This document shows, piece after piece, positions 1,286 through 8,509 of a stretch of DNA of 46,786 nt. Source of the DNA: Arenimonas sp. (lineage in GTDB: Bacteria; Pseudomonadota; Gammaproteobacteria; Xanthomonadales; Xanthomonadaceae); NCBI RefSeq assembly GCF_022842045.1, contig NZ_JALHQI010000018.1:1-46786 (forward strand), in the 5' to 3' direction. Each line of letters opens with the position of its first letter. Position 1 is the first letter of the stretch. The notes under the pieces are model-generated. The model had not been told where the DNA came from. It searched no databases and saw nothing but the letters and a program-made list of their open reading frames with translations. A program made the translations under genes and the position numbers.

Positions 1286-2307
1286 GCCTGATGTCGGAAC
1301 GCAAGGCCGGCCACATCGAAGCGGTGCTCTCGGGCCGGGTGAATGCGCGCGCGGTGGACGCCGGCTTCGACCGACTGCGCTTCGAACACTGCGCGCTGCC
1401 CGAGCTGGACCTGCAGGACATCGACCTGTCGACCGACTTCCTCGGCAAGCGGCTGCAGCGGCCCTTCCTGATCAGCTCGATGACCGGCGGCCACGCGCAC
1501 GCGACGCGGATCAACGCGGTGCTGGCGGAAGCGGCGCAGGCGCTGGGCATCGCACTGGGCGTGGGCTCGCAGCGGGTGGCGCTGTCCGGCGGCGGCTTCC
1601 AGGGCACCGACCGCAGCCTGCGCCGGCTGGCGCCCGACATCGCGCTCTACGGCAACCTGGGCGCCGCGCAGCTGCGCGAGTACGACACCGACGACATGCG
1701 CCGCGCGGTCGACATGATCGACGCCGATGCGCTGATCATCCACCTCAACCCGCTGCAGGAAGCGCTGCAGGCGCGCGGCGACACCCGCTGGAGCGGCCTG
1801 CTGGCGCGCCTGGAGCGCGTCTGCGCGACGCTGCCGGTGCCGGTGATCGTCAAGGAAGTCGGCTTCGGCATTTCCGCGCCGGTGGCCCGGCGGCTGGCAG
1901 GCTGCGGCGTGGCGGCGATCGACGTCGCCGGCGCCGGCGGCACCAGCTGGAGCGCGGTGGAGGGCCACCTGGCGACTGATCCGCAGCAGGCGGCGCTGGC
2001 CGAGATCTACCGCGACTGGGGCCTGCCGACCGCGACCGCGCTGCGCGAGGTGCGGGCGGCGCTGCCGGCGCTGCCGCTGATCGGCTCCGGCGGCATCCGC
2101 CACGGCCTCGATGCCGCCAAGGCGCTACGCCTGGGCGCCAGCCTGGTCGGCCAGGCCGGCCCGCTGCTGCGGGCCGCGATCGAGGGCGTGGCGCCGCTGA
2201 TGGCGCATTTCGCCCAGCTCGAGCAGGGCCTGCGGCTGGCCTGCTTCGCCACCGGTTCGGCCGACCTGGCCGCGCTGCGCCGCGTGCGGCTGCTCGAAGA
2301 CGCCTAG
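1282..2307 (+). CDS. fni: Type 2 isopentenyl-diphosphate delta-isomerase (FMN dependent)
   Basis: Interconverts isopentenyl and dimethylallyl diphosphate, supplying both C5 units for carotenoid synthesis. The 341-residue TIM-barrel protein shows the family motifs in order: 'SSMTGGHA' near residue 65, 'GVGSQR' near 93, 'HLNPLQE' near 153, 'KEVGFG' near 190, '[10 protein letters not shown]' near 214 and 'IGSGGIR' near 266 (flavin phosphate binding). The ATG at 1282 overlaps the blh stop (ATGA). A much longer upstream reading frame exists but is a GC-driven extension over blh. This is the last gene of the visible operon. The flavin-dependent type 2 enzyme is unrelated to the Nudix type 1 isomerase. 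Confidence 0.93.
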
Positions 2308-2657
2308 CCCGGGCTGGCTTTCAGGAAGACCTGGCGTGAAGGCGGGAAGGGTCTCGGGGCTCCACCCGCCCCTTGGAAGGCGTGCTACTCGATTTCGCTG
2401 GTTACCCGCAGGGCGAGAGTCTCGGTATTGCCCGACGCCAAGAGGCTGGCGGTAGGTGCGATGTACGTGCGGGCGCTGCCGTCGGCGGGCCGGAGCAGAC
2501 TCAGGGAAGACACCGCGAAGGCAACCCACGAGGCTTCAACGCCAACCTGGCAGGGTGGAGGGCGGCGCGGTAGCGGTGCTAACGAGCGCCCCCCGGTATT
2601 GGTTGCGTGGCCACCGCCCGTGCGACGGTGAACACCCACGTTGGATCGAACCTGCCG
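2308..2657. other. 350-bp intergenic region with no confident gene
   Basis: This stretch lies between the fni stop and the stop of the minus-strand CVNH/PASTA gene (tail to tail). It holds only short overlapping reading frames. The least unlikely is a minus-strand GTG-initiated frame at 2385-2639 (84 codons) whose last ~30 residues look protein-like ('ARTYIAPTASLL', 'LALRVTSEIE'). It is in the same frame as the secreted-protein gene, beyond that gene's TGA. No strong terminator hairpin with a T-run was found for either convergent gene. Confidence 0.4.
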
Positions 2658-4748
2658 TCAGAACTTGCAGGCACCCTTGGTGAAGGGGCACTGATACCCA
2701 TACTTCTGCCTCAGGAAGGACTCGGCGCTTTCTTCGCTGCAGACGAAACCTTCGTCCTGGAACAGCGTGGGCTTGCACACCCCGTTGTTCTCCAGCTTCT
2801 CCTGGTCACTGCAGATGTTGTCCTTGCAGGCGCTGCAGTAGACGAGGAACTTGGGTTCCTTGCCGTCACATACCTTGGTGCCGGACGTTCCGCCGGCGGT
2901 CGGCTTCAGTCCCAGGCTCAGATCGACAGCCGATCCGTGGACCGCCGAGACTCCGGCCGCGGGGGTATGCGAGAGCACCACCAGGGTCTCGTCGGTTCCA
3001 AGCAAGCCGTTGGTGTTCAGCCGACCCAGGCTCAGGCGCACCTGTGCGAGGCTGTTCTTGGCCTGCCCCAGGGTCTGGCCAACAAGGTCCGGCACGGTCG
3101 AACTCGGGATGTCGCCACAGATCAACTTGCCGTTGTGGTTGTTGATGGGCTGGTTGCAGCCCGAGACATTGAGGCCGTGCAGGGTTGAGTATCCCCCGCG
3201 GAGCGTCTGGCAGGCGGCCGTCAGTATCCCGCGCTCGAACGTGATGCCAACGCAGGAGTCTTGGTAGGGTCCCGCCGGCGGAACGTCTGGGCTGCAACGG
3301 AGCTTGTTGGTATCCGCGGAGATGCCGCCGGCGCACTGGCGAACGTCGGCGATTTCGCCGCAGGTCGAAGTGAGCCTGAAGTCGGTCAGGACGAACTCCG
3401 TGCACTTGGCCCGGCGGCTGGTCCAACGCAGGGAATCGAGCCGCGACCCGACAGAGCACTTGAGGATGCCGTTGGCATCGGCGAAAGGAATGGACGTGCA
3501 AGCCGACGTGTCCAGGCTGGTGTCCACCAAGGCCTCGCTCAAGTTGCGGCATTGCCCCCGCAGCACGCCCGTCCCCGGGCGCAAGGGGTTCGGAAACAGG
3601 CTCTGCATGTAGGCAAACAGGCCGAGCGGGGCCTGCTGCATGCCTCGCACTTCCCATTCGTACCTGGCGCTGACGATGCCTTCCGAGAGGTTTCCGGGAA
3701 TCGGCCCCTGCTCGTTCGACAGGGCGCACGCGCTGTAAAACGCGGCGTCCCGGTCGCTCACGCACCGCCCGTCGATTTCACGCCTCCCTCCGCGGCAACT
3801 CGGGAAGGCTTCCGCTGCGGTGCAGGCCCGCTGGCGATCACCGCCGCACGCACCGCTTGCCAGGCAGATGCCCCGGATCTCGACCAGGCCCGGATCGCAG
3901 CTGCTCCGTCCCACGATGGCGCAGGCACGCTCATCGAGGCGTCCGCACGCAGGACGGATGCAGACGTTGTTCTGCGGCACCAGGGTCGCCACGCATCCTG
4001 TCAGCGGCTGCCAGGCGCCCGGCTCGCCGGCCAGGCAACGCCGTTTCCCCTCGGCGCCGCAATCGCCGCGTACCTGGCAGACATTGTCGAACTCGACCAG
4101 GCCGCGATCGCAGCTGTTGCGGCCGGCGATGGCGCAGGCCCGTTCGCCGACGCGTCCGCAGGCGACGCGCCCGACCAGTGTCGCGGGCCGCACGTCGGTC
4201 CTCGCGGGCACCACGCAGGCCTGGTTTGATTGAACGTGGGCCGTACCCCTGACCGCGCCAGCCGGGCACGTCCAGCACGATCCGATATCCGCGAACTGCC
4301 CGGCGCCGCAGCCCGCGCGCCGGATGAAGGTCGCTGGCTGCTTGCGGTCGAACACGCCGCCCGGTTGGCCACAAGCCGCAGGCCCGTTGACCGGCGACAC
4401 CGTCCTGACCAGGCCGGAAGGGCAACGCCAGCACTCGCCACCGTTGCGCGGATCAGTGACGTCCCCGGCATCGCAGACCGCCGAGCCCTGCCTGGTGGCC
4501 GGACCCGTCGTAGCTGGAACGGCAGCCTCGCAGGCATTGGCTGCCGTCACGGGGAAAACGGTCCGATTGAATCCGGCCGGGCACTCCCAGCACTCGCCGC
4601 CGTTGCGCGGGTCGAGGAATCCGCGGGGGCAGGTTTGGGCACTGGAGATCGCCGGCCAGGCCAGCAGCGCGGTCAGCACCACCAGGCACCAATACCCGGC
4701 AAGCCGTCGAGGAAGGTCGTTGTTGACGCGGGATGTCTGGGGAGTCAT
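2658..4748 (-). CDS. Secreted Cys-rich protein with cyanovirin-N-like (CVNH) region and PASTA domain
   Basis: A 696-residue exported protein of unknown function. The start (ATG at 4748) is chosen because it gives a signal peptide: charged residues to 15, a hydrophobic core at 20-36 and an 'SSAQ' cleavage region. Residues ~38-180 hold three Cys-rich repeats of the pattern DPRNGGECWxCPxG, and ~187-330 hold further CGRxxERACAI modules. Residues ~395-545 resemble the cyanovirin-N homology fold; the clearest half-repeat is 492-544 ('GPYQDSCVGI', 'TAACQ', 'NHNGKLIC'), with an earlier one at ~395-431 ending 'ANGILKC'. Residues ~549-613 form a PASTA domain ('VPDLVGQTLGQAKNSL'). The tail is again Cys-rich. 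CVNH domains bind mannose glycans and PASTA domains often bind cell wall, so glycan binding outside the cell is inferred. It stands alone between convergent fni and divergent ior. Confidence 0.7.
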   Translation of the reverse strand: MTPQTSRVNNDLPRRLAGYWCLVVLTALLAWPAISSAQTCPRGFLDPRNGGECWECPAGFNRTVFPVTAANACEAAVPATTGPATRQGSAVCDAGDVTDPRNGGECWRCPSGLVRTVSPVNGPAACGQPGGVFDRKQPATFIRRAGCGAGQFADIGSCWTCPAGAVRGTAHVQSNQACVVPARTDVRPATLVGRVACGRVGERACAIAGRNSCDRGLVEFDNVCQVRGDCGAEGKRRCLAGEPGAWQPLTGCVATLVPQNNVCIRPACGRLDERACAIVGRSSCDPGLVEIRGICLASGACGGDRQRACTAAEAFPSCRGGRREIDGRCVSDRDAAFYSACALSNEQGPIPGNLSEGIVSARYEWEVRGMQQAPLGLFAYMQSLFPNPLRPGTGVLRGQCRNLSEALVDTSLDTSACTSIPFADANGILKCSVGSRLDSLRWTSRRAKCTEFVLTDFRLTSTCGEIADVRQCAGGISADTNKLRCSPDVPPAGPYQDSCVGITFERGILTAACQTLRGGYSTLHGLNVSGCNQPINNHNGKLICGDIPSSTVPDLVGQTLGQAKNSLAQVRLSLGRLNTNGLLGTDETLVVLSHTPAAGVSAVHGSAVDLSLGLKPTAGGTSGTKVCDGKEPKFLVYCSACKDNICSDQEKLENNGVCKPTLFQDEGFVCSEESAESFLRQKYGYQCPFTKGACKF

Positions 4749-5011
4749 GTCAGGCTTCAGGGGGGTGGGCCTGAAGAAAGAAACGAGCAATGGGTCCTCG
4801 CTCGGCCATGCGAGGCCGTGCGGGACAAACGGGTGACGGCAGTCGGGACCGCTCGGCAACAGGCAGCCCGGCCCGGTGGCGCGGGGTTTGGCAGCCGCCG
4901 CCGCGGGAGAGGCCGTGGGAGTGGGTGGCCCGCTTCACGCCCTCCCCACCCGGCCCGGGACCGCGACCCGGGTATAATTCCGAGTCTTTGCTCCAGCCCC
5001 GGAAACCGCCC
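4749..5011. other. Divergent intergenic region between the secreted-protein gene and ior
   Basis: 263 bp that must carry the promoters of both divergent genes. A perfect TATAAT is present on the plus strand at 4973-4978 (annotated separately). Long reading frames crossing this region on both strands are extensions of, or antisense shadows of, the flanking genes. Confidence 0.5.
4973..4978 (+). promoter_or_regulatory. Candidate -10 element for the ior gene
   Basis: A perfect TATAAT hexamer lies 33 bp before the ior ATG in otherwise very GC-rich DNA, which makes chance less likely. No TTGACA-like -35 is visible at 16-18 bp spacing, so it could depend on an activator. Transcription would start near 4985, giving a short leader of about 27 nt. 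Confidence 0.45.
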
Positions 5012-8000
5012 ATGTCCGTCCCGACCCTCCCGACCGAACGTCCGCTCGACCGCGAGTACACGCTCGAGCACAAATACACGCGCGAAGAGGGCCGGATCTA
5101 CCTGTCCGGCGTGCAGGCGCTGGTGCGGCTGCCGCTGATGCAGCAGATGCGCGACCGCGCCGCCGGCATCAACACCGCCGGCTTCATCTCGGGCTACCGC
5201 GGCTCGCCGCTGGGCGGCTTCGACCTGGAGCTGTGGAAGGCGCGCAAGCACCTCAAGGCCAGCGGCATCGAGTTCACGCCGGGCCTGAACGAAGACCTTG
5301 GCGCGACGATGGTCTGGGGCTCGCAGCAGACCAACCTGTTCCAGGGCGCGAAGTACGACGGCGTGTTCTCGATGTGGTACGGCAAGGGCCCGGGCGTGGA
5401 CCGCTGCGGTGACGTGTTCAAGCACGGCAACGCCGCCGGCACCTCGAAGCTGGGTGGCGTGCTGGCGCTGGCGGCCGACGACCACGCCTGCCGCTCGTCC
5501 ACGCTGCCGCACGGTTCCGAGGGCGAGTTCGAGAGCGCGATGATGCCGGTGCTCAACCCGGCCGGCGTGCAGGACATCCTGGACATGGGCCTGCTGGGCT
5601 GGGCGATGAGCCGCTACACCGGCCGCTGGATCGGCTTCAAGACGATCGCGGAAACGGTGGAGTCGTCGGCCTCGGTGAACGTGAACCCGCACCAGCTCGA
5701 CATCATCCTGCCGGGCGACTTCGAGCTGCCCCAGGGCGGCCTCAACATCCGCTGGCCGGACCCGCCGCTGGACCAGGAAATGCGCCTGCACCAGTACGCG
5801 GTGAAGGCCGCGCAGGCGTTCGCGCGCGCCAACCACATCGACAAGGTCGTCGTGGATTCTCCCAAGGCGCGGCTGGGCATCGTCACCACCGGCAAGAGCT
5901 ACCTGGACGTGCTTCAGGCGCTGGAATACCTGGGCATCGACCGCAAGGTGGCCGAGGACATCGGCATCCGCGTCTACAAGGTCGGCATGACCTGGCCGCT
6001 GGAGCCGCTGGGCATCCGCGAGTTCGCGCGCGGGCTGGAGGACATCATCGTCGTCGAGGAGAAGCGCAGCTTCGTCGAGCGGCAGATGAAGGAATACATG
6101 TACAACTGGGAGCATCGCCCCTCCATCGTCGGCAAGTACGACGAGCTGGAGAACTGGGTGCTGCCGAGCACGAACGAGCTGACCCCGGCGCGCATCGCCC
6201 GCGTCATCGCCGGCCGCGTGCAGCGCTTCTTCCGCAGCGAGCAGATGGACAGCCGCCTGCAGTGGATCGCCGCCAAGGAGAAGGAGCTGGCCGCCCCGCG
6301 CGCCAACTTCCCGCGCGTGCCGCACTACTGCTCGGGCTGCCCGCACAACTCGTCCACCGTGGTGCCGGAAGGCTCGCGCGCGCTGGGCGGCATCGGCTGC
6401 CATTACATGGTCACGTGGATGGACCGGAAGACCGACACCTTCACGCACATGGGCGGCGAAGGCGTCACGTGGTCCGGCCAGGCGCCGTTCACCGAGGAAA
6501 AGCACGTCTTCCAGAACCTGGGCGACGGCACCTACTTCCACTCCGGTTCGCTGGCCATCCGCCAGTCGATTGCCGCGAAGGTGAACATCACTTACAAGAT
6601 CCTCTACAACGACGCGGTAGCGATGACCGGTGGCCAGCCGGTGGACGGCACGCTCACCGTGCCCGACATCGCGCACCAGGTGCGCAGCGAGGGCGTCAAG
6701 ACCATCGTCGTGCTCTCCGATGACATCGAGAAGTGGTCGGATCGTTCGATCTTCCCGAGCGGCGTGGAGTTCTTCGACCGCAGCGAGCTTGACGCGCAGC
6801 AGAAGCGCCTGCGCGAGGTCCCCGGCACCACCGTGCTGATCTTCGACCAGACCTGCGCGGCCGAGAAGCGCCGCCGCCGCAAGCGCGGCAAGATGGTGGA
6901 CCCGGCCAAGCGCATCGCCATCAACTCGCTGGTCTGCGAGGGCTGCGGCGACTGCGGCGTGAAGTCGAACTGCGTGAGCGTGCTGCCGAAGGAAACCGAG
7001 TACGGCCGCAAGCGCGAGATCGACCAGAGCAACTGCAACAAGGACTTCAGCTGCGTGAAGGGCTTCTGCCCGAGCTTCGTCACCGTGAAGGGCGGCGGGC
7101 TGCGCAAGCGCAAGGGCACGGGCAACAAGGAGCTGCTGGCGAACCTGCCGGCGCCCGTGATCCGCGGCGACCTGGAACAGCCCTGGAACATCCTGATCAC
7201 CGGCGTCGGCGGCACCGGCGTGGTGACCATCGGCGCGCTGCTGGGCATGGCCGCGCACCTGGAGAACAAGGGCGCGTCGGTGCTCGACCAGACCGGCCTG
7301 GCGCAGAAGGGCGGCGCGGTCACCACCCACGTGCGCATCGCGCGCACGCCGGCCGACATCCACGCCGTGCGCATCGCGGCCGGTGAGGCCGACCTGGTGC
7401 TGGGCTGCGACATGGTCGTCGTGAACGACTACTGGGCGCTGTCCAAGATCCGCGCCGACCGCACCGAGGTCGTGATCAACGACTACCAGGCGATGCCGGG
7501 TCCGTTCACGCGCCAGCCGGACATGCAGTTCCCGGCCGCGGGCATCGTCGAGGCGATCCGCACGGCGCTGGGCGGCCGCGAGCCGCTGCAGGTCGCCGCC
7601 ACCGAGATCGCCACCGCACTGATGGGCGACGCCATCGCCACCAACCTGTTCATGCTGGGCGTGGCCTGGCAGCGCGGGCTGGTGCCGATCAGCTTCGAAG
7701 CCATCGAGCGCGCCATCGAGCTCAACGGCGCCGCGGTCGAGATGAACAAGACCGCCTTCGCCTGGGGCCGCCTGTCGGCCATCAACCCCGAGGCGGTGCT
7801 CGAGGCGGCGGGCCTGGTCGAGGCGCCGGCGGAAGCCAGCACGCTCGCCGACTCGCTCGACGACGAGGCCATCAGCCAGTCGCTCGACGAACTGATCGAA
7901 CGCCGCGTGAAGTTCCTCACCGACTACCAGGACAAGGCTTACGCCGGCCGCTACGTCGCGCTGGTGGACAAGGTGCGCCAGGCCGAGGCCCGCAAGGCCG

Positions 8001-8509
8001 ACGGCTCGACCGCGCTCACCGCGGCCGTGGCCCGCTACTACTTCAAGCTCATGGCCTACAAGGACGAGTACGAAGTGGCGCGCCTTTACACCTCGGGTGA
8101 TTTCCAGAAGCGCATCGCGCAGCAGTTCGACGGTGACTACAAGCTGCACTTCAACCTGGCGCCGCCGCTGTTCTCCAAGCGCGATGCCGATGGCCACCTG
8201 GTGAAGCAGGAATACGGCCCGTGGATCTTCACGGCGTTCAAGCTGATCAAGAAGCTGAAGTTCCTGCGCGGCGGCGCGTTCGACGTGTTCGGCAAGACCG
8301 AGGAGCGCCGCATGGAGCGCCAGCTGATCACCGACTACGCCAACACGGTCGAGGAACTGCTGGGCAAGCTCGACGCCGGCAACGTGGCGCTGGCCACCGA
8401 GATCGCCTCGGTGCCCGAGCACATCCGCGGCTTCGGCCACGTCAAGGAAGCCCACTTCGCCAAGGCCAAGGCCCGCGAGGCGGAGCTGCTGGCGAGCTGG
8501 CGCGCCTGA
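5012..8509 (+). CDS. Indolepyruvate ferredoxin oxidoreductase, fused alpha/beta (aerobic type)
   Basis: Oxidatively decarboxylates aryl pyruvates (indolepyruvate, phenylpyruvate) to aryl-acetyl-CoA using thiamine diphosphate and iron-sulfur clusters, in aromatic amino-acid catabolism. The 1165-residue protein is the fused aerobic form. An N-terminal pyrimidine-binding region begins near 'GYRGSPLGGFD'; a TPP-binding region follows 'CSGCPHN' near residue 440; a four-Cys cluster motif 'CEGCGDCG' is near 642; and the gamma domain begins with 'GVGGTGVVT' near 730. The start at 5012 is the first ATG matching the family N-terminus; upstream sequence in frame is low-complexity leader. A bidirectional palindrome/terminator follows at 8521. 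It could work with phenylalanine hydroxylase (25132) in aromatic amino-acid breakdown, which is inference. Confidence 0.92.
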   Translation: MSVPTLPTERPLDREYTLEHKYTREEGRIYLSGVQALVRLPLMQQMRDRAAGINTAGFISGYRGSPLGGFDLELWKARKHLKASGIEFTPGLNEDLGATMVWGSQQTNLFQGAKYDGVFSMWYGKGPGVDRCGDVFKHGNAAGTSKLGGVLALAADDHACRSSTLPHGSEGEFESAMMPVLNPAGVQDILDMGLLGWAMSRYTGRWIGFKTIAETVESSASVNVNPHQLDIILPGDFELPQGGLNIRWPDPPLDQEMRLHQYAVKAAQAFARANHIDKVVVDSPKARLGIVTTGKSYLDVLQALEYLGIDRKVAEDIGIRVYKVGMTWPLEPLGIREFARGLEDIIVVEEKRSFVERQMKEYMYNWEHRPSIVGKYDELENWVLPSTNELTPARIARVIAGRVQRFFRSEQMDSRLQWIAAKEKELAAPRANFPRVPHYCSGCPHNSSTVVPEGSRALGGIGCHYMVTWMDRKTDTFTHMGGEGVTWSGQAPFTEEKHVFQNLGDGTYFHSGSLAIRQSIAAKVNITYKILYNDAVAMTGGQPVDGTLTVPDIAHQVRSEGVKTIVVLSDDIEKWSDRSIFPSGVEFFDRSELDAQQKRLREVPGTTVLIFDQTCAAEKRRRRKRGKMVDPAKRIAINSLVCEGCGDCGVKSNCVSVLPKETEYGRKREIDQSNCNKDFSCVKGFCPSFVTVKGGGLRKRKGTGNKELLANLPAPVIRGDLEQPWNILITGVGGTGVVTIGALLGMAAHLENKGASVLDQTGLAQKGGAVTTHVRIARTPADIHAVRIAAGEADLVLGCDMVVVNDYWALSKIRADRTEVVINDYQAMPGPFTRQPDMQFPAAGIVEAIRTALGGREPLQVAATEIATALMGDAIATNLFMLGVAWQRGLVPISFEAIERAIELNGAAVEMNKTAFAWGRLSAINPEAVLEAAGLVEAPAEASTLADSLDDEAISQSLDELIERRVKFLTDYQDKAYAGRYVALVDKVRQAEARKADGSTALTAAVARYYFKLMAYKDEYEVARLYTSGDFQKRIAQQFDGDYKLHFNLAPPLFSKRDADGHLVKQEYGPWIFTAFKLIKKLKFLRGGAFDVFGKTEERRMERQLITDYANTVEELLGKLDAGNVALATEIASVPEHIRGFGHVKEAHFAKAKAREAELLASWRA

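What the first reader, a model, noticed from the sequence alone, without database searches (positions are those of the whole stretch)
2658..4748. Secreted protein joining Cys-rich repeats, a cyanovirin-N-like region and a PASTA domain
Residues ~492-544 carry the CVNH half-repeat pattern (PxGPYxxSC, TAAC, NxNGKLxC), with a second similar half at ~395-431, followed directly by a PASTA domain and preceded by three DPRNGGECWxCPxG repeats. CVNH domains bind high-mannose glycans (known for cyanovirin-N); PASTA domains bind peptidoglycan fragments in other proteins. Together they suggest a secreted glycan- or wall-binding factor, perhaps acting on fungi, algae or competing bacteria. I know of no described protein with this layout.
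Basis: partly seen in the sequence, partly recalled or inferred. Interest (0 to 1): 0.72.

Follow-up and report, generated by a model that had tools for sequence, protein, structure and literature searches.

The report
Secreted lectin on cysteine-rich stalk
A bacterial gene encodes an apparently exported protein that sets a cyanovirin-like (sugar-binding type) domain on a long cysteine-rich stalk; about half of the stalk's relatives found in other bacteria carry other kinds of sugar-binding domain, so it may be one of a set of interchangeable secreted sugar-binding heads.

Summary
The ORF is real: 696 aa on the minus strand (4748 to 2658), signal-peptide-like start, 49 cysteines. One canonical cyanovirin-N-homology (CVNH) half-repeat lies at 490-545 (46.8 bits; best of 5000 shuffles 8.0); its family profile finds only cyanovirin-family chains in the PDB at E <= 1. 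A partial half lies at 395-432; a third (436-489) is only suggestive. Pfam's CVNH cut-off is not met. PASTA (551-612) passes its cut-off when scored alone, not in the whole protein. Three TNFR/ephrin-receptor-like repeats (40-178, the third degenerate) fold confidently with an alignment. The same repeats occur in 43 fetched loci: 23 carry tectonin or ricin-B lectin domains, and no CVNH or PASTA was detected. The gene fills a ~2.7 kb segment that one congener lacks; no homologue was found in 26 congeners. Most likely a secreted modular lectin with a CVNH head on a disulfide-rich stalk. Glycan, target and export route are unknown, and structure prediction did not resolve the CVNH region. New variant of a known kind, moderate interest.

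The parts
2658..4748 (-). Whole gene, 696 aa, secreted multidomain lectin-like protein
   Evidence: ORF; GC3 0.82 against 0.93-0.96 for the three nearest genes
4638..4748 (-). Signal-peptide-like start, residues 1-37 (RR, hydrophobic core, SSA site)
   Evidence: read by eye; most hydrophobic stretch begins at about residue 21; no signal-peptide predictor was run
4215..4631 (-). Three TNFR/ephrin-receptor-like Cys repeats, residues 40-178 (40-73, 92-126, 147-178)
   Evidence: Alignment A1; 43 loci with the repeat; PF07699 in relative L002 at 36.5 bits, none in P0001 itself; AlphaFold2 ten-residue block means 78-97 over 41-190
3759..4163 (-). Four CGxxxxRxC modules, residues 196-330
   Evidence: Local profile, four hits of 40-47 bits; the profile was built with these copies, so the scores are not independent. 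Also in L011, L009/L097, L072, L103 (in the profile) and L084 (not in it)
3453..3566 (-). Partial CVNH half-repeat A, residues 395-432
   Evidence: 10.1 bits in the whole protein; 16.7 and 20.2 bits as a segment, 0 of 5000 shuffles reach it
3282..3440 (-). Possible degenerate CVNH half B, residues 437-489 (not claimed)
   Evidence: Cys spacing partly matches; score weak: 62, 42 and 157 of 5000 plain shuffles and 116, 82 and 261 of 5000 cysteine-fixed ones reach it with three profiles
3111..3281 (-). Canonical CVNH half-repeat C, residues 490-546
   Evidence: 46.8 bits with a profile built without it; cyanovirin-N tandem dimer at E 1.5e-5 in PDB; family profile A3 hits only cyanovirin-family chains
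2913..3098 (-). PASTA domain, residues 551-612
   Evidence: PF03793, 27.7 bits as a segment; 21.4 bits in the whole protein, below the 23.2 cut-off; no PDB sequence at E <= 1 by phmmer
2661..2876 (-). C-terminal Cys-rich tail, residues 625-696, 8 Cys
   Evidence: No Pfam family above cut-off; no relative in 199 other genomes of the order
2280..4949 (.). Segment absent at the same place in congener G010; this is the only gene I recognise in it
   Evidence: blastn: window 2201-2279 and 4950-5200 match L056 with 31 bp between the two matches

Best explanation
The gene encodes a modular secreted lectin. Shown: the three repeats have a confident predicted structure, a CVNH half-repeat and a PASTA module follow, and in 23 of 43 fetched loci the same repeats occur in one protein with tectonin or ricin-B lectin domains. 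Inferred: Sec export; the seven N-terminal Cys modules act as a stiff disulfide-bonded stalk; CVNH halves A and/or B pair with C into a glycan-binding head; the PASTA module is a spacer or accessory binder; the protein works outside the cell as an adhesin or agglutinin for a glycan on another organism's surface or on an exopolysaccharide. It was probably gained horizontally.
For: CVNH: 46.8 bits at 490-545, best of 5000 shuffles 8.0; all 17 PDB sequences with E <= 1 found by the half-repeat profile belong to the cyanovirin family. Three tandem halves also in L005 and Rhizobium L113. Repeats: ten-residue block means 78-97 over residues 41-190. Lectin domains on the same repeats: 16 tectonin and 7 ricin-B of 43 loci, all above Pfam cut-offs. 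Hydrophobic stretch near the N-terminus in 40 of the 43. Insertion: one congener lacks the segment; low GC3; 0 of 26 congeners have a match.
Against: Pfam CVNH is below cut-off for this protein (15.5 of 24.5 bits) and absent from the whole-protein list. Only one half is canonical, and a half alone is not a known CVNH fold (recalled). AlphaFold2 gives pLDDT below 50 for 207 of 212 residues of 335-546, for all of PASTA and for 46 of 72 tail residues. The five cyanovirin-N sugar contacts that I recalled are all changed. 20 of the 43 loci show no tectonin or ricin-B domain. Foldseek: no PDB match with E <= 0.001; the repeat profile finds no TNFR or ephrin-receptor chain in the PDB at E <= 1. Two other window ORFs also have GC3 0.81, so low GC3 is weak evidence of transfer.
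Confidence: 0.5

Rival explanations
1. A chimerolectin-type effector: the CVNH part targets the protein to a glycan on a eukaryotic or bacterial cell, and the Cys-rich tail (625-696) or another part is the harmful moiety.
For: An unrelated fungal five-domain chimerolectin pairs lectin domains with a non-lectin domain needed for toxicity (PMC13324453, abstract read). The tail is distinct, Cys-rich and without relatives in 199 other genomes of the order. Stalk relatives read carry long regions of no known family.
Against: No toxin or enzyme domain is recognised in the protein. I recognise no partner or immunity gene in its segment, though only one small ORF there was scanned.
Confidence: 0.2
2. 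A periplasmic or surface wall-binding factor acting through the PASTA domain, with the CVNH-like part as a second wall-glycan binder.
For: PASTA segment at 27.7 bits; PASTA domains of PknB are reported to bind muropeptides (PMC3145798, title and start of abstract in a search listing).
Against: Only one PASTA domain, no kinase or penicillin-binding domain. PASTA was found in none of the 43 stalk relatives, so it is not what the stalk usually serves. The PASTA-like stretch of L013 lies in a protein read by eye as RHS-like, so the module may be a general spacer.
Confidence: 0.12
3. An exopolysaccharide or matrix protein of the bacterium's own biofilm, with the CVNH domain binding self-made polysaccharide.
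For: Signal-peptide-like start, many Cys modules and no enzyme domain fit a structural matrix protein; inference only.
Against: No match in the 26 congeners examined, some of them incomplete genomes, whereas a core matrix protein would be expected to recur. No polysaccharide gene among the 15 other window proteins scanned with Pfam.
Confidence: 0.13

Closest known systems
Cyanovirin-N / CVNH family (PF08881)
   Same: Half-repeat C has the G-x-Y/F-x-x-S/T-C ... L-x-x-x-C ... N-x-x-G-x-L pattern; phmmer finds cyanovirin-N dimers at E 1.5e-5
   Different: Extra Cys pair, as in the other bacterial relatives aligned; possibly three halves of uneven quality; part of a 696-aa protein; below the Pfam cut-off
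CVNH-LysM lectin (PDB 2l9y; MoCVNH3 5c8o; both listed)
   Same: CVNH joined to a second module of wall-glycan-binding type
   Different: LysM rather than PASTA; recalled as fungal, with LysM inserted in the CVNH domain; no Cys stalk (recalled)
Bacterial CVNH proteins (Rhizobium lusitanum WP_183686486.1; L005; L003)
   Same: CVNH halves with the same extra cysteines in most copies; L005 and Rhizobium have three halves in tandem and, by eye, signal-peptide-like starts
   Different: No ephrin-receptor-like stalk or PASTA reported by Pfam in L003 or the Rhizobium protein; L003 shows no signal peptide by eye
Stalk + tectonin or ricin-B proteins of Thalassospira and other bacteria
   Same: Same Cys repeats, hydrophobic N-terminal stretch, lectin domain elsewhere in the chain
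   Different: Tectonin or beta-trefoil head, long middle region in those read; no CVNH or PASTA detected

Membership tests
CVNH (PF08881) | Pfam curated cut-off 24.5 bits | tested here: not met
   15.5 bits on the cut-out region; not listed for the whole protein
CVNH (PF08881) | CVNH half-repeat signature | tested here: met
   46.8 bits, best of 5000 shuffles 8.0; family profile finds only cyanovirin-family chains in PDB at E <= 1
CVNH (PF08881) | Two pairing half-repeats per domain | tested here: inconclusive
   C canonical, A partial (0 of 5000 shuffles), B weak (42 to 157 of 5000 plain shuffles)
CVNH (PF08881) | CVNH beta fold | tested here: inconclusive
   Two AlphaFold2 runs; region nearly all below pLDDT 50. 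No CVNH homologue was in the alignment: those I had came from sources the tool does not list as permitted
CVNH (PF08881) | Mannose-type glycan binding | not testable with these tools
   needs a binding assay
PASTA (PF03793) | Pfam curated cut-off 23.2 bits | tested here: inconclusive
   27.7 bits as a segment, 21.4 in the whole protein
PASTA kinases (NF033483) | Kinase plus PASTA repeats | tested here: not met
   NCBIfam 10.5 bits against 450, PASTA part only; no kinase domain listed
Ephrin_rec_like (PF07699) | Pfam curated cut-off 23.1 bits | tested here: not met
   Not listed for P0001 at E <= 10; 12 of 44 members of A2 hit at E <= 0.01, best seen 36.5 bits in L002, which is the L069 protein
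Stalk-plus-lectin proteins (grouped here) | CW.CP repeats, hydrophobic N-terminal stretch and a lectin-type domain | tested here: met
   the lectin-type part rests on the CVNH half

The most novel reading that the evidence does not exclude
The Cys stalk is the constant part of a bacterial plug-in lectin system: different species mount tectonin, ricin-B or CVNH heads on one secreted scaffold to choose which glycan-coated partner is bound, and the window gene is its first CVNH version, with up to three uneven half-repeats.
Probability: 0.3. Interest if true: 0.6.

Novelty: new variant of a known kind. Interest (0 to 1): 0.42.

Why it matters
CVNH domains look rare in this class of bacteria at Pfam sensitivity (2 of 369 genomes matched, 1 above the cut-off; the window's own genome did not match, so divergent ones are missed) and are, as far as I know, little studied. 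A CVNH head on a stalk that elsewhere carries tectonin or ricin-B lectins would show that secreted bacterial lectins are built by exchanging the recognition head on one scaffold, and would give a testable set of natural glycan probes.

Tried and rejected
Rejected: a CVNH domain passing Pfam (it does not). Rejected: chance Cys patterning for half A (plain and cysteine-fixed shuffles) and for half C (whole-protein shuffles only). Half B is not claimed. The beta-lactamase matches (E 0.63-0.76), the alginate-lyase match (E 1.3) and the docking-domain match (E 0.09 and 0.023) were set aside as chance. Phage origin: no match among 50,697 phage records and no confirmed relative in IMG/VR with four queries. 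A whole-protein scan of genome contigs found no relative; its patterns were exact 8-residue stretches, so this is weak evidence of absence. The phospholipase-type look of L104 and L106 was not supported by Pfam (0 families). The Foldseek list is headed by TNF-receptor chains, none significant. Literature: 8 papers hold both 'cyanovirin-N' and 'pasta'; by titles and abstract starts none describes such a protein; the other searches listed none either among the rows shown (listings only).

Full report
The observation. The gene runs on the minus strand from 4748 to 2658 and encodes 696 aa with 49 cysteines. The start looks like a Sec signal peptide by eye: two arginines, a hydrophobic core and an SSA site; no predictor was run. 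The layout is: signal-peptide-like start, three CW.CP repeats (40-178, the third without DPRNGGE), four CGxxxxRxC modules (196-330), a CVNH-like region (about 395-546), PASTA (551-612) and an 8-Cys tail.

CVNH. Pfam alone would not have called it: not listed for the whole protein at E <= 10, and 15.5 bits, E 0.03, for the cut-out region against a cut-off of 24.5. A whole-protein phmmer search of the PDB has cyanovirin dimers at the top, but only at E 0.24. Four other lines support it. First, phmmer with the half alone finds cyanovirin-N tandem dimers at E 1.5e-5, helped by their repeated copies, and other cyanovirin-family chains at E 0.09-1.2, mostly over the first 34 of 57 residues. Second, L003, with a Pfam CVNH domain above the cut-off (28.4 bits), aligns with residues 488-546 at E 2e-4. 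Third, a profile of nine half-repeats from six loci (L003, L005, L012, L020, L021, L022), built without this protein, scores 46.8 bits at 490-545, while the best of 5000 shuffles has 8.0. Five of these six loci (all but L005) were themselves found by searching with P0001. Fourth, the family profile A3, which includes the query half, finds 17 distinct PDB sequences at E <= 1, all named cyanovirin-N, CVNH or (one) mannan-binding lectin.

A second half at 395-432 is reached by 0 of 5000 plain and 0 of 5000 cysteine-fixed shuffles (again 0 and 0 with a larger profile that contains half C). It matches only the later part of the half-repeat (profile positions 19 on); its first hairpin is missing or interrupted. 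For 436-489, 62 of 5000 plain and 116 of 5000 cysteine-fixed shuffles reach its score with the query-free profile, 42 and 82 with half C added, 157 and 261 with the larger profile; I do not claim it. L005 and the annotated Rhizobium lusitanum CVNH protein (50.5 bits) each have three tandem halves, so a three-half region would not be unique.

Structure. AlphaFold2 on the single sequence failed (mean pLDDT 33.5). With an alignment of the window protein and 58 pieces of related-loci loci, the three repeats are confident (ten-residue block means 78-97 over 41-190). But 207 of 212 residues of 335-546, all of PASTA and 46 of 72 tail residues stay below 50. I had no CVNH homologue from a source that the tool lists as permitted; two viral-contig scans with CVNH alignments found none. 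So structure neither supports nor refutes the CVNH fold. Foldseek gave 42 PDB matches with E <= 10 and none with E <= 0.001; TNF-receptor chains lead at E 0.3 or worse. The repeat profile finds no such chain in the PDB by sequence (5 hits at E <= 1, best 0.079, a copper ATPase). A TNFR-like rod is thus only a hint.

The stalk family. A scan of genome contigs with the repeat alignment matched 153 stretches, of which 43 were confirmed, in alpha-, beta- and gammaproteobacterial, Myxococcota, Gemmatimonadaceae, Nitrospinae, Streptomyces and Nostoc records. Three of them are the same proteins as L002, L008 and L009. Pfam on these 43 proteins plus P0001, with 30 of the 43 also listed one by one, gives 16 with tectonin and 7 with ricin-B domains, disjoint and all above the curated cut-offs: 23 of 43. 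One ricin-B protein also has DM9 repeats (L095). NCBIfam names lectin families in several members (5, 4 and 1 for its three lectin models) and none in P0001. In the other 20 no tectonin or ricin-B domain was found at E <= 0.01; two of these are cut by a contig end (L084, L096). PASTA was listed in none of the 43, and CVNH in none, by Pfam or by the local profile. The loci are not independent: 10 of 43 records are titled Thalassospira. The CG modules recur in L011, L009/L097, L072, L103 and L084; in L072, L097, L103 and L084 they share a protein with the stalk repeats, and an ORF beside the L072 gene also scores (31.2 bits).

Distribution and origin. Among 99 related genomes 2 had any match, and none of the 26 congeners, whose completeness ranges from 74 to 100%. 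Order-wide 8 of 397 other genomes matched and phylum-wide 7 of 397 (the samples overlap, and at most two candidates per genome were scored in the rows shown). Each match aligns one part only: repeats, CG module, CVNH half or PASTA; the G576 protein (L009) has both repeats and a CG module. No second protein with the whole layout was seen. The gene lies between an FMN-dehydrogenase-family gene that I read as idi2 (1291-2307) and a POR-type gene that I read as iorA (5012-8509); beyond them are a BCD-family gene and M56, penicillinase-repressor and EAL genes (the names idi2 and iorA are recalled). In congener G010 the two sides, window 2201-2279 and 4950-5200, match 31 bp apart. In G002 two T2SSE-type ATPase genes sit between idi2 and iorA; upstream of iorA in G026 lies a GmrSD-type gene. 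Of 16 congener stretches fetched, idi2 was seen near iorA in two only, G010 and G002, so the 'variable spot' rests on few loci. GC3 is 0.82 against 0.93-0.96 for the three nearest genes and 0.88 for M56, but two other long ORFs of the window have 0.81. This fits horizontal gain without proving it.

Mechanism. I think it most likely that the protein is exported, the Cys modules form a stiff stalk, and CVNH halves form a glycan-binding head outside the cell. Shown: domains by profile, the repeat model and the lectin company of the repeats. Inferred: export route, pairing of halves, glycan, target and benefit. Cyanovirin-N contacts that I recall (Lys3, Gln6, Thr7, Glu23, Thr25; from no call) map to Pro, Asp, Ser, Gln and Leu by the alignment, so high-mannose binding should not be assumed. 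PASTA is as likely a spacer as a wall binder.

Novelty. CVNH, PASTA and ephrin-receptor-like repeats are known. The combination was not found in the genomes searched, in plasmids (one record of 72,556 with a stalk match; a Rhizobium CVNH match at E 0.2 with the C-terminal half of the protein as query), in phages or in the paper listings. I rate it a new variant of a known kind. The wider pattern, one stalk with exchangeable lectin heads, is the more interesting lead.

Noticed in passing
L071:3787-6981, L094:3952-6831, L017, L018: Proteins that join several Cys repeats, a long middle region with hydrophobic stretches (by eye) and a C-terminal tectonin or ricin-B domain; Pfam lists no family for the middle region.
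   Followed up: partly
L104:4039-5367, L106:4243-5376, L007:3086-4561: Nostoc, Methylococcaceae and Streptomyces proteins carry one or two Cys repeats inside what looks by eye like a PI-PLC-type catalytic domain; Pfam reported no family for L104 and L106.
   Followed up: partly
L003:46-1854, L012:130-2067: CVNH domains near one end of ~600-aa proteins with a CxxCH haem-type motif towards the other, with the order reversed between the two.
   Followed up: no
L020, L021, L022: Small proteins with one recognisable CVNH half followed by a segment resembling beta-gamma crystallin by eye; a single half raises the question of how it folds.
   Followed up: no
window 2280-4949 and L053, L056, L060: The place upstream of iorA varies among congeners: this gene, 31 bp, two T2SSE-type ATPase genes, or a GmrSD-type gene (idi2 not seen in the last).
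   Followed up: partly
window 2385-2639, minus strand: An 84-aa ORF just downstream of the gene with a protein-like C-terminal half; no Pfam family. Possibly a remnant.
   Followed up: partly
L105, L108, L109, L110: Enterovibrio versions have a lipobox-like GC or AGC near the N-terminus by eye, so some stalk proteins may be lipid-anchored.
   Followed up: no
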